Positions 1 through 2,412 of a stretch of 64,000 bases of DNA are shown piece by piece (the first letter of the stretch is position 1; every line of letters begins with the position of its first letter). A model generated the notes under the pieces. The model saw only the letters and a program-made list of their open reading frames with translations, did no database searches and had not been told where the DNA came from. The translations under genes and the position numbers were made by a program. The DNA lies in the NCBI RefSeq assembly GCF_013385985.1, contig NZ_JACAOY010000012.1, positions 412,064 through 476,063 of the forward strand. The letters are read 5' to 3'. The DNA is from Pseudomonas sp. B6002 (lineage in GTDB: Bacteria; Pseudomonadota; Gammaproteobacteria; Pseudomonadales; Pseudomonadaceae).

Positions 1-883
1 TGTCCATCAACGCTGCCCCTACTTGTCTCGACAAACAGGCACTGGTCATTTTAGCTCCATACGCATGAAACATTCCAGTTTCGCTGGCAGACGGGCGCAC
101 AACCTTCCTAAAAGTAAGTATATCTATGAGCCGTCCAAGTTGATCATTAACGTCCCACGCGGGGTTCTCATTTCTATGTAATTCATCTAAAAACCTATCT
201 TGAGTGTTATCGATAAAATAATCTGCAAGATGGAATGTATCGCTTACTTTCTGCCCGCTATTAGATCCTGAATCCTGATCGCGCTCGATGAATTTATCGA
301 TCTCCTCACCTGATGAAGAGTTACACTTCCCATCTCTAAGCCGAGAACGTCTTTTTTGGTTCTCGCAAACTACCCCAACGAGACAAAATGCTTCCTGATA
401 AACACTACGCAACAGAGATACTTCTGCTGGATTTTTTAGCGAATCTAAAATATAAACTCTAAATGGTTTCTCAGTACCACTAGAACTATCGCTTGAAGGT
501 GCCTTTCTAATACCAACAATTTCTGAAATCAGACTAACAGCAACTCCAGCCGCATCTTTTGACCTAATAGCGTCCCCTGCATCTTGGAGGGATTTAGCCC
601 GAGACAACTGCGATGCATTATCGATAGTGAAATTTTTAGATTCCGCCCAACTGGCAATTGCGTTACTGGCTTTCAAAACCACAACTTCCGAACTTGGAAT
701 AGCGTTACTCAGACACTCTTTCAGCGCCGTCGCGATCCAGCTCGTCCCGGAACCGGCAGGCCCCACTACAGCGAAGATCAACTCTCTAGAAACTAAAGAT
801 CCCAGTAAAGTGCTAGATGTCTGATTGCTGTCGTTTGATGCAACAGGTACGGTGCTCTGAGCAACTGGCATTTTCAATTCCAT
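1..883 (-). CDS. avcD: Anti-phage dCTP deaminase, AvcD/DcdV type (partial, C-terminus beyond window edge)
   Basis: Enzymes of this family deaminate dCTP/dCMP during phage infection and so deplete deoxycytidine nucleotides. I translated the minus strand by hand: 294 codons stay open to the window edge. Residues 34-48 form a P-loop (core GPAGSGTS at 41-48). The middle part shows the kinase-like signatures YILDSLKNPAEVSLLR and DTFHLADYF. The last visible stretch, FHAYGAKMTSACLSRQVGAA, is the entry of the deoxycytidylate deaminase domain. The zinc-binding HAE and PCxxC residues would lie beyond base 1. The start could be ATG at 883 (no clear RBS) or ATG at 871, which has GGAA about 7 bases upstream; the latter removes four residues. 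Base composition is much more AT-rich than the rest of the window, which suggests horizontal acquisition. No partner gene is visible. The family call is strong; activity cannot be judged from a fragment. Confidence 0.9.
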   Translation of the reverse strand, partial: MELKMPVAQSTVPVASNDSNQTSSTLLGSLVSRELIFAVVGPAGSGTSWIATALKECLSNAIPSSEVVVLKASNAIASWAESKNFTIDNASQLSRAKSLQDAGDAIRSKDAAGVAVSLISEIVGIRKAPSSDSSSGTEKPFRVYILDSLKNPAEVSLLRSVYQEAFCLVGVVCENQKRRSRLRDGKCNSSSGEEIDKFIERDQDSGSNSGQKVSDTFHLADYFIDNTQDRFLDELHRNENPAWDVNDQLGRLIDILTFRKVVRPSASETGMFHAYGAKMTSACLSRQVGAALMD

Positions 884-1603
884 TTGAGATAATTAGTTAA
901 AATTAGCTTGCCACAATTCCGGCCTAACACGCTTTCTTTCAAAATAACGATATATCTACCCACCCATCAGCCTTCCGTATGTCGACGACTTATAACTCCA
1001 AAAAAACGTCGTCTTTCTTCGATAACCCAGGCGGAATCATAGATCATCGTTAGATTTTTTGACACGTTTGGCATCTGGAGCATCTGACGGAAGCGTCACC
1101 TGCAATGATACGTTGCGACTTATCTGAAAACCTAGCCCGCCTATCGCCACGACCCTCCTTGACAAGCCTGCACATCGATATTTTTTTCATAAAGCTCTGA
1201 TTTTGCTGATTTTCTTAAAAATGAAGTGCTCAATTTGCGAGATTTCGGCTCTACCTATCAAACCTTTCCCCTCTGTCAACAGCCGGAAGCTACAGACGTA
1301 GTTTTCCCGGATCCTTACCTAATTAGACAGATAGAAGCCTCTCCCTCAGCTAGGTCGTTTCGCTAATTCGTCTAACCAGCGCATTTCACTGCCTGAGGAC
1401 ACGACATGATTCAGGCACTACAGCACCACCGATCTCGTTTGGCGTTTTTCTATGCCTTTGGTTTTGTGTAACGGAGGGTTTGCGTAGAAGGCCTCAAGGT
1501 CTGCGAGGTACCTGTGTCTCCGTTTTCTCGACCCGAGCACAGATGAACTCCCACTCGCCTGAATTAGTACATTTAGATCTCGTCAGATATGGGGGTTTGA
1601 TCT
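884..1603. other. AT-rich intergenic region upstream of avcD; possible site of an RNA antitoxin
   Basis: These 720 bases have no open frame I would call a gene. The composition is AT-rich up to about 1400. Visible elements are a GACGAC/GTCGTC inverted repeat (984-989 and 1008-1013), a poly-A/T tract between its arms (999-1006), and a 21-codon frame at 1407-1472 on the plus strand with no recognisable product. In characterised AvcID systems the AvcI antitoxin RNA is encoded immediately 5' of avcD, so the part nearest base 884, read on the minus strand, is the place to look. I could not define RNA ends. Confidence 0.35.
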
Positions 1604-1830
1604 ATGAGCACTGCACCTGCATCTGACGCCCCCACCAATCTTTATTCCGCGCCAACGGGGGGGTCTGCCTGAAACCTTACACCACGTTTCCGATTTGCTT
1701 CATTTCGCCAAGTGGCTCGCAAAATAGCGATCGCCACATCTGGGCTTCGCATTATCTGCAGGAGATGAGCAAGGCTGTGATTGATGATGCGGTGAAGGTA
1801 TTGGAGTCGCCCGACATCACCATGCAATAG
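1604..1830 (+). pseudogene. Frameshifted DUF3077-type small protein gene
   Basis: Three consecutive pieces in different frames together resemble one DUF3077 protein, a small family of unknown function common in Pseudomonas. The start ATG at 1604 follows GGGGG at 1591-1595 and gives MSTAPASDAPTNLYSAPTGG. The frame breaks at a run of seven G (1657-1663) and would stop at 1670. Reading on in the next frame gives GLPETLHHVSDLLHFAKWLA to a stop at 1725. A third frame then gives IWASHYLQEMSKAVIDDAV, typical of the family's C-terminal helix, ending with TAG at 1828-1830. The combined length of about 75 residues fits the family. The first break is at a homopolymer and could be slippage or a sequencing error; the second has no such explanation. 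Family assignment is by eye. Confidence 0.6.
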
Positions 1831-1859
1831 GCTGTTGATGCAGTGACTGAGCCGCCACC

Positions 1860-1884
1860 ATCGCGGGCAAGCCCGGCTCCCACA
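1860..1884. repeat. Single REP half-site
   Basis: Sequence GCGGGCAAGCCCGGCTCCCA, the right arm of the common fluorescens-type REPIN, without an opposing arm. It directly abuts the terminator at 1884-1922. Confidence 0.7.
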
Positions 1885-1922
1885 AAAAAGCGCCCCAGCC
1901 TGTGAAGGCTGGGGCGCTTTTT
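1884..1922 (-). terminator. Rho-independent terminator of the downstream membrane-protein gene
   Basis: Perfect stem AGCGCCCCAGCC/GGCTGGGGCGCT with a six-base loop, flanked by A-run and T-run, so it can act in both directions. It lies just beyond the stop codon at 1927 of the minus-strand gene. Confidence 0.85.
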
Positions 1923-1926
1923 GCTG

Positions 1927-2412
1927 TCAGGCAAACCGCCCGCCTTGCCTGCGTAGGTAAACCATCTGCGCAGCCACCCCCACCACCAGCGCCAACGCAA
2001 TCCCCCCCTGCGCCCCAATCAACACCGGCGACTGCAGATCCGTCACAAACGGATGCCCATCCGGCACTCTGCGCAACGTCTCCGAAACGGTCGGTACCAT
2101 CAGGAAAAACGCGGTCAGGCTCAGGAAGATCGTTTCCAGATACGCCCGCGCCCTACCCAGCCAGCTGACATATCCCACGCCATACCCCGCCAGCAGCAGT
2201 GCAATCGTGATGACGCCAATCACGTTGCTGACCGGTTGCTTCGCGACCAAAAACACCGTGAAACCACCGATCAGCATCGATGCCAGGTAGAGCACGCCCG
2301 GCGTCGAGCGGGGGACGATGCGGCCGTGGCGGATGAACATGTAGGCGGCCAGTGGAATGGCCGGCAGGCTGCCGAGGGTGTGCAGCCAGCCGAGGGCGGA
2401 GATTCCGAACAT
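1927..2412 (-). CDS. Hypothetical inner-membrane protein, 161 aa
   Basis: Not recognised beyond being an integral membrane protein. The 161 residues hold about five hydrophobic segments: near 5-25, 42-55 (VLYLASMLIGGFTVFLVA), 62-82, 92-108 and 133-150. The C-terminus is basic (MVYLRRQGGRFA). No signal peptide cleavage site or enzymatic motif is visible. It stands alone, transcribed away from the AraC-type gene at 2533, and ends in a strong terminator. Function unknown. Confidence 0.7.
   Translation of the reverse strand: MFGISALGWLHTLGSLPAIPLAAYMFIRHGRIVPRSTPGVLYLASMLIGGFTVFLVAKQPVSNVIGVITIALLLAGYGVGYVSWLGRARAYLETIFLSLTAFFLMVPTVSETLRRVPDGHPFVTDLQSPVLIGAQGGIALALVVGVAAQMVYLRRQGGRFA

What the first reader, a model, noticed from the sequence alone, without database searches (positions are those of the whole stretch)
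1..883. Anti-phage dCTP deaminase (AvcD/DcdV type) at the left edge, interrupted by the window
Seen: an AT-rich minus-strand frame of 294 codons with P-loop GPAGSGTS, YILDSLKNPAEV, DTFHLADYF and the deaminase entry ACLSRQVGAA. Known: AvcD/DcdV proteins of Vibrio and E. coli combine a P-loop kinase-like domain with a deoxycytidylate deaminase domain and stop phage by depleting dCTP/dCMP. Inference: this is a horizontally acquired phage defence gene in an otherwise core Pseudomonas region, so the DNA left of base 1 may be a defence island.
Basis: partly seen in the sequence, partly recalled or inferred. Interest (0 to 1): 0.85.

Follow-up and report, generated by a model that had tools for sequence, protein, structure and literature searches.

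The report
Phage-defence deaminase with unstudied partner protein
The gene at the window's edge is a known kind of bacterial enzyme thought to stop viruses by destroying a DNA building block, but it belongs to a branch that carries a second, undescribed protein gene joined to its end, which hints that this branch is switched by a protein rather than by the small RNA known from its relatives.

Summary
The 294-codon frame is the first part of a complete 539-codon gene that passes the curated NCBIfam model 'anti-phage dCTP deaminase' (424 bits, cut-off 400) and matches PADLOC's dCTPase, with an intact HAE/PCxxC zinc centre: so far a new member of a known kind. One base after the deaminase stop, behind GGAGGG, starts a 184-codon gene matching nothing in Pfam, NCBIfam or PADLOC. 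I found a homologue at the same place in 23 loci (four phyla, plasmids, viral contigs). In a 54-protein tree the 16 deaminases with it form one clade (97/100); none of 38 outside has it. It is under purifying selection and distantly like DUF488. In two loci it is the N-terminal part of a TIR-APAZ protein followed by a short Argonaute gene. Against the closest relative, DNA similarity covers only the two genes, so no upstream RNA like AvcI is visibly conserved; other clades lose upstream similarity too, so this is not proof. Best reading: a two-gene variant in which a protein partner controls the deaminase. Shown: operon, clade, fusion. Inferred: what the partner does.

The parts
1..883 (-). 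AvcD/DcdV-type dCTP deaminase, N-terminal 294 codons (P-loop-like domain and start of the deaminase domain). The whole gene is 539 codons and continues 736 bases and one (base 0) beyond the left edge: G000:C4:411327-412946 = L009:15828-17447. Behind it, outside the window, lies the partner gene, 184 codons, minus strand, L009:15272-15826 = G000:C4:410771-411325, starting one base after the deaminase stop.
   Evidence: deaminase; partner:
884..1751 (.). Stretch upstream of the deaminase gene without an ORF of 80 aa or more on either strand; no similarity to the nearest relative beyond 15-27 nt from the start codon. Similarity to the flanks of same-genus genomes resumes at about 1936-1952 (one further 207-nt match to G017 at 1631-1812).

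Best explanation
It is a two-gene anti-phage module. Gene 1 encodes an AvcD/DcdV deaminase: a P-loop-like N-terminal domain plus a zinc deaminase domain that turns dCTP/dCMP into dUTP/dUMP and so starves phage DNA synthesis. Gene 2, translated directly behind it, encodes a small DUF488-like partner. The partner most likely binds the deaminase and keeps it off until infection, doing the job that the AvcI RNA does in the studied systems; infection removes or alters the partner. In two loci the same partner domain is fused to the TIR-APAZ subunit of a short-Argonaute system, so there it would connect the deaminase to guide-directed detection of foreign DNA. Shown here: family of gene 1, operon structure, clade linkage, purifying selection on gene 2, fusion. 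From the literature on relatives: the chemistry and the RNA control. Inferred: physical binding, inhibition, release on infection.
For: Family: NF041025 E=5e-127 above cut-off, PADLOC dCTPase E=3.5e-148, PF00383 E=1.1e-11; zinc motifs in 16 of 16 clade members, a GxxG[SA]G-type P-loop motif in 13 of 16 (L012 and L075 are frames without the N-terminal part; L047 is full length without the motif). Partner: at the deaminase stop in 9 of 9 genome-contig relatives (-34 to +3 nt); in G046; in 3 of the 8 plasmid loci opened, out of 61 plasmid records with a match, these 3 being the 3 most similar; in 5 of 5 places found by searching 299 Pseudomonadota genomes with the partner profile alone; in 3 of 4 places in 220 genomes of another class; in 2 of 2 viral contigs. 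Tree: 16 of 16 in one clade, 0 of 38 outside, support 97/100. Selection: window's genome against Stutzerimonas pS 0.82, pN 0.22. Fusion: L042 and L050 partners continue into Aga_TIR-PNTD1-PNTD2 (E 4.5e-136 and 4.2e-110), next gene pAgo_I (5e-205, 2.5e-173); the two fused proteins are 38% identical over 575 aligned positions, partner part included.
Against: No experiment or complex model shows binding or inhibition; no structure prediction ran. The partner could as well be an activator or a second effector. Loss of upstream DNA similarity is not special to this clade: in other clades pairs with 89-90% identical deaminases show none (L021/L024) or about 55 nt (L025/L030) upstream, though others keep much more; a fast-evolving RNA is not excluded. 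The DUF488 link is distant: 1 of 11 members at E=0.11, the C-terminal Cys...CHR motif is missing, and single members have other sub-threshold Pfam matches with lower E-values (L041: AAA_16 5.8e-5; L048: Pdase_M17_N2 1.8e-4). Three deaminase fragments of this branch show no partner: L076 and L090 run into a contig end, L079 is a remnant close to one; they cannot be judged. The fourth hit (E=7.6e-4) has no deaminase beside it.
Confidence: 0.6

Rival explanations
1. The partner is a sensor or activator: it recognises a phage cue and switches the deaminase on, rather than holding it off.
For: In L042 and L050 the partner domain is joined to the subunit of an Argonaute system that is activated by recognition of foreign DNA (SPARTA activation as in the abstract start of PMC11156904, listing). 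A DUF488-HTH fusion with a ParB-type fold binds CTP (PMC12704722, one passage), a hint at nucleotide sensing.
Against: The studied AvcD needs an inhibitor in uninfected cells (AvcI; PMC10511110, passages), so an inhibitor is the simpler need; no direct evidence either way here.
Confidence: 0.2
2. It is an ordinary AvcID system with an RNA antitoxin that is too divergent to see; the second gene is an accessory of no regulatory role.
For: About 0.87 kb without an ORF of 80 aa or more lies upstream of the gene; upstream similarity is lost in other clades too.
Against: Similarity to L040 (85% identical deaminase) covers 2171 bp: the two genes plus 15-27 nt. No Rfam match over a gathering score there except the tRNA. 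An accessory without role would hardly stay in 23 loci over four phyla under purifying selection.
Confidence: 0.13
3. The partner is an independent second toxin or effector that works beside the deaminase.
For: DUF488-like proteins are of unknown function and could be enzymes; R70 and Y96 are invariant in 18 of 18 members and R82 in at least 90%.
Against: Every strong hit to the partner in the 299 and the 220 genomes lies beside a deaminase; in the fused loci an effector (TIR) is already on the same chain.
Confidence: 0.07

Closest known systems
AvcID / DcdV anti-viral cytidine deaminase (V. cholerae, V. parahaemolyticus, E. coli ETEC; PMC10511110 and PMC9455884, passages)
   Same: Same protein family by curated model, same two-domain build, same zinc motifs; expected dCTP/dCMP depletion.
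   Different: Different clade: the ETEC H10407 record lies in another branch. The studied systems have an upstream RNA antitoxin; here a protein gene follows the deaminase and no upstream element is visibly conserved.
dCTPase of PADLOC / NF041025 antiphage_deaminase
   Same: Matches both.
   Different: The models describe the deaminase alone. The window's partner has no PADLOC hit at E up to 1; among 18 family members two have one weak hit each, or one member has both (PDC-S63 0.014, PDC-M45B 0.015).
SPARTA (short Argonaute with TIR-APAZ)
   Same: Two relatives (L042, L050) carry a TIR-APAZ-type protein and a short pAgo in the same operon.
   Different: There the TIR-APAZ protein has the DUF488-like partner at its N-terminus and AvcD in front. 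The window's own locus shows no Argonaute or TIR gene among its ORFs.
Clover (dGTPase CloA with regulatory partner CloB; PMC12265719, outline and abstract)
   Same: A nucleotide-depleting effector paired with a partner protein that restrains it.
   Different: Different enzymes: CloB is a nucleotidyltransferase making an inhibitory signal; the partner here is DUF488-like.
DUF488 (PF04343)
   Same: Profile-profile match around the D.R..P / R / Y signature: probability 82%, score 41.7 over 74 columns, against at most 19.2 in 200 column shuffles.
   Different: Below Pfam's thresholds (best of 11 members E=0.11) and without the C-terminal Cys...CHR motif.

Membership tests
AvcD/DcdV anti-phage dCTP deaminase (NF041025) | Whole-protein score above the curated cut-off | tested here: met
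   424.4 bits against 400
AvcD/DcdV anti-phage dCTP deaminase (NF041025) | Zinc centre HAE and PCxxC | tested here: met
   HAEMD and PCHYC
AvcD/DcdV anti-phage dCTP deaminase (NF041025) | N-terminal P-loop-like domain | tested here: met
   GPAGSGTS, and alignment to PADLOC profile 140-546 of 630; no Pfam kinase model hits and the canonical Walker A lysine (recalled) is not there
AvcD/DcdV anti-phage dCTP deaminase (NF041025) | dCTP/dCMP deamination and phage protection | not testable with these tools
   needs enzyme and plaque assays
AvcID type III toxin-antitoxin | Upstream inhibitory RNA AvcI | tested here: inconclusive
   No upstream similarity to the nearest relative beyond 15-27 nt, no Rfam hit over gathering score except the tRNA; a divergent RNA is not excluded
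DUF488 (PF04343) | Score over Pfam gathering cut-off | tested here: not met
   P0002: no hit at E up to 10; 1 of 11 family members at E=0.11, 13.5 bits against 22.2
DUF488 (PF04343) | C-terminal Cys...CHR motif (seen in four of the six DUF488 proteins) | tested here: not met
   absent in the hhalign alignment; hence 'DUF488-like', not a member
SPARTA | Short pAgo and TIR-APAZ in one operon | tested here: not met
   own locus: no such ORF seen, deaminase, partner and P0003 without such a hit; met in relatives L042 and L050
Housekeeping-type dCMP deaminase (ComEB, TIGR02571) | Equivalog cut-off 219 bits | tested here: not met
   42.7 bits

The most novel reading that the evidence does not exclude
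A whole branch of the AvcD family has exchanged RNA control for control by a DUF488-like protein, and this partner domain is a plug that joins the deaminase to different sensors: in some operons it is built into the TIR-APAZ arm of a short Argonaute system, so that guide-directed recognition of invading DNA would fire NAD and dCTP depletion together.
Probability: 0.4. Interest if true: 0.8.

Novelty: new variant of a known kind. Interest (0 to 1): 0.6.

Why it matters
Nucleotide-depleting defences must be kept off in healthy cells. For AvcD the control described in the papers seen here is an RNA. A clade-wide, translationally linked protein partner, sometimes fused to an Argonaute-linked TIR protein, gives a direct way to ask how such deaminases are gated and whether defence effectors are combined through shared adaptor domains. 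If the partner is needed, tools that look for the deaminase alone see half of the system.

Tried and rejected
Housekeeping deaminase: rejected by NCBIfam scores. AvcI-like RNA upstream: Rfam with E up to 1 gave, besides the tRNA, five matches below gathering scores, one on the tRNA and four at L009 18348-18526 around the REP-like repeat; no upstream similarity to L040 or G046; not fully excluded. Attachment-site repeat of the tRNA-Thr end: none among the three direct-repeat families found. Empty site: G017, G009 and G047 share the right flank from L009 about 18,500 on (G017 has one more 207-nt match at L009 18195-18376); in G017 the same tRNA-Thr region lies 20.7 kb from the same right-flank gene (5.0 kb in the window's genome) with other cargo between, so a variable site but no clean empty site. 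Solved structures: no sequence relative of the 11-row partner alignment at E up to 10. Partner in plasmids by single-sequence tblastn: none at E up to 10, although three plasmids carry one seen by position, so single-sequence searches are weak. hhalign of the partner with 2- and 6-row DUF488 alignments was weak; the 9-row alignment, picked by a motif filter that looks for the D.R..P signature, gave the clear score. A first shuffle control held one outlier of 123.6, taken as a parsing fault of that script because the repeat with 200 new shuffles and stricter parsing showed nothing above 19.2. Single-member Pfam matches (AAA_16, Pdase_M17_N2, Rhodanese and others) were not pursued because no model hits more than one of the members scanned. 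Tree: 4 duplicate loci dropped (58 to 54 rows); L050 (deaminase broken over two frames), L061, L076-L079 and L090 (fragments or failing the motif filter) were not in it, and L127-L132 came later; by blastx L077 and L078 are nearest to rows without partner, L076, L079, L090, L061 and L050 nearest to rows with it. Structure prediction never ran, so no fold search. Papers: PMC10511110, PMC9455884, PMC12704722, PMC9674854 and PMC11084316 passages; PMC12265719 outline and abstract; PMC6299218 term search only (no hit for deaminase, DUF488, dCMP, deoxycytidylate); all others listing only. That the partner or the Argonaute link is not in print rests on searches, which list only the best papers of an open-access library; the two founding 2022 papers on these deaminases were not read and are recalled.

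Full report
Check of the observation. The minus-strand frame at window 2..883 exists with all quoted motifs, in a kilobase of GC 0.44. The window sits at G000:C4:412064-476063, and the left flank completes the gene: 539 codons, L009:15828-17447 minus.

What the gene is. The full protein matches NCBIfam NF041025 'anti-phage dCTP deaminase' (E=5e-127, 424.4 bits, cut-off 400), PADLOC dCTPase (E=3.5e-148) and Pfam PF00383 (E=1.1e-11). HAEMD and PCHYC form the zinc centre. The ComEB model scores 42.7 bits against a cut-off of 219. In 399 genomes of the same genus 26, the window's own included, have a relative at E up to 1e-20; of the 25 others G046 is 68% identical and the rest 28-41% in their best segment.

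The second gene. One base after the deaminase stop, behind GGAGGG, starts a 184-codon frame (L009:15272-15826 minus) without any hit in Pfam, NCBIfam or PADLOC at E up to 1. In all 9 relatives that the one scan of public genomes returned (Stutzerimonas, Variovorax, an alphaproteobacterium, three Acidobacteriota, Myxococcus, Hyphomicrobium, Nitrospira) a frame of 164-191 codons, 663 in L042, starts between 34 nt before and 3 nt after the deaminase stop. G046 has it too. 18 of these proteins align as one family, R70 and Y96 of the window's protein invariant, R82 in at least 90%. Between the window's genome and L040 silent sites are saturated (pS 0.82) while pN is 0.22 (deaminase 0.83 and 0.09), so the frame is a real protein gene.

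How strict is the link. Searching with the partner profile alone, 299 Pseudomonadota genomes gave 5 places in 4 genomes; all 5 overlap or abut a deaminase frame. In a draw of 299 with the same handles the deaminase model was found in 28 genomes at E up to 1e-10, short matches included, over its cut-off in 9. 220 genomes of another class, a few of them in the first draw too, gave 4 places: 3 (E up to 3.5e-12) overlap a deaminase stop, the fourth (E=7.6e-4) lies in a 1533-aa frame with no deaminase. A search of 48 genomes around G486 found only 4 places already known. Of 61 plasmid records with a deaminase match I opened 8; the 3 most similar have the partner (L050 with a broken deaminase), the 5 others do not. 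Both viral contigs found have it. Each locus counted once, 23 loci carry both. Three deaminase fragments of the branch (L076, L079, L090) show no partner but lie at or close to contig ends. In a maximum-likelihood tree of 54 deaminases the 16 with partner form one clade (97/100, 97% of bootstrap trees) and none of the other 38 has it within -80 to +300 nt of the stop; the ETEC H10407 record lies in a different, 11-row clade (94/99).

What the partner is. Pfam sees at best DUF488 at E=0.11 in 1 of 11 members; other single-member matches below Pfam's cut-offs are AAA_16 (L041, 5.8e-5) and Pdase_M17_N2 (L048, 1.8e-4), and among 18 members PADLOC gives two weak single-member matches (PDC-S63 0.014, PDC-M45B 0.015). 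A profile comparison with a 9-row DUF488 alignment drawn from genomes gives probability 82%, score 41.7; 200 column-shuffled controls reach at most 19.2 and the reversed alignment 13.2. Comparisons with smaller DUF488 alignments were weak. The C-terminal Cys...CHR motif of DUF488 is absent. I call it DUF488-like, not a DUF488 member. No solved structure is related by sequence.

The Argonaute link. In L042 residues 192-638 of the long partner match PADLOC's Aga_TIR-PNTD1-PNTD2 (E=4.5e-136; TIR-APAZ in other terms), also Pfam TIR_2 (E=3.6e-21), and the next gene is a short Argonaute (pAgo_I, E=5e-205). The Rhizobium gallicum plasmid locus L050 has the same order (4.2e-110; 2.5e-173), though its deaminase is broken over two frames. 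The two fused proteins are 38% identical over 575 aligned positions, partner part included. L047 has a SIR2-type Aga and short Argonaute pair on the opposite strand just upstream. Of 9 flanking genes of four other relatives, chosen by eye, 7 match PADLOC at 1e-10: Hma B and C (L046), MzaB and a type II methyltransferase (L045), type I restriction (L048), PDC-M30/M41 proteins (L043). One review holds the words dCTP deaminase, pAgo and TIR together, but in separate sections and, in the passages seen, without a link (PMC11084316).

Regulation. AvcD of Vibrio parahaemolyticus is held by the RNA AvcI, whose loss after phage-induced transcription shut-off frees the enzyme (PMC10511110, passages). 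Between the window's genome and L040, whose deaminases are 85% identical, DNA similarity runs over 2171 bp, the two genes plus 15-27 nt of leader. No upstream element is shared. This is not proof: of the pairs compared in other clades some lose upstream similarity as well (L021/L024, L018/L026, L025/L030) and some keep it (L016/L017, L023/L027). Still, what is kept here is the two genes, and the partner is the natural candidate for the control element. A parallel exists: Clover pairs a dGTPase with a regulatory partner (PMC12265719, abstract).

Surroundings. To the left lie a 308-codon frame and tRNA-Thr(TGT), then DNA that reaches GC 0.61-0.68. In G017, 81% similar on both sides, the same tRNA-Thr and the same right-flank gene are 20.7 kb apart, against 5.0 kb here, with other cargo, part of it AT-rich. 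So the module sits in a variable stretch by a tRNA gene.

Verdict. The deaminase is an ordinary new member; the two-gene build is a new variant. The function of the partner is inference, and the decisive tests are simple expression and binding experiments in laboratory E. coli.

Noticed in passing
upstream of the deaminase start in L013, L014, L016, L017, L034, L052, L053, L054, L063, L064: In the clade that holds the ETEC system, 10 of the 11 loci were examined and all 10 have a 50-89 codon frame just upstream of the deaminase, where AvcI RNA is expected; 8 of 10 end in K..W, and five same-genus copies show pS 0.70-0.95 against pN 0.35-0.52. The 'RNA antitoxin' region may also encode a small conserved protein. 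One of the many upstream frames in the partner clade (L049) happens to end likewise.
   Followed up: partly
L018, L019, L021, L024, L026, L027, L028, L031 (50-81 aa); L025, L029, L030, L032, L033 (77-88 aa), directly downstream of the deaminase: Other deaminase clades in the same genus carry their own small downstream frames: one kind with a W-P motif (WPxWK or WPxSI), one ending in a RIL...R.RF/RH-type motif. Each clade may have its own small partner protein.
   Followed up: no
N-terminus of the deaminase in L018, L019, L020, L022, L023, L026, L027, L028, L031, L065: These deaminases begin with an extra stretch of about 60 residues with a conserved tryptophan and FQG pattern, not seen in the window's protein.
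   Followed up: no
window 1846-1895: REP-like repeat: the search with window 1-2400 returned 53 matches in the genome, nearly all of them short matches to this stretch.
   Followed up: no
L122:6417-10684: In relative G017 the stretch near the same tRNA-Thr holds an AT-rich pair: a 539-aa frame that looks like a serine hydrolase and an 884-aa frame that looks nucleotide-binding (by eye); neither hits PADLOC at 1e-5. A candidate for an unknown defence pair.
   Followed up: partly
L049:1-1399 and L051:6570-8863: Both plasmid relatives carry a ThiF-family adenylyltransferase and a multiubiquitin-domain protein close to the deaminase and partner.
   Followed up: no
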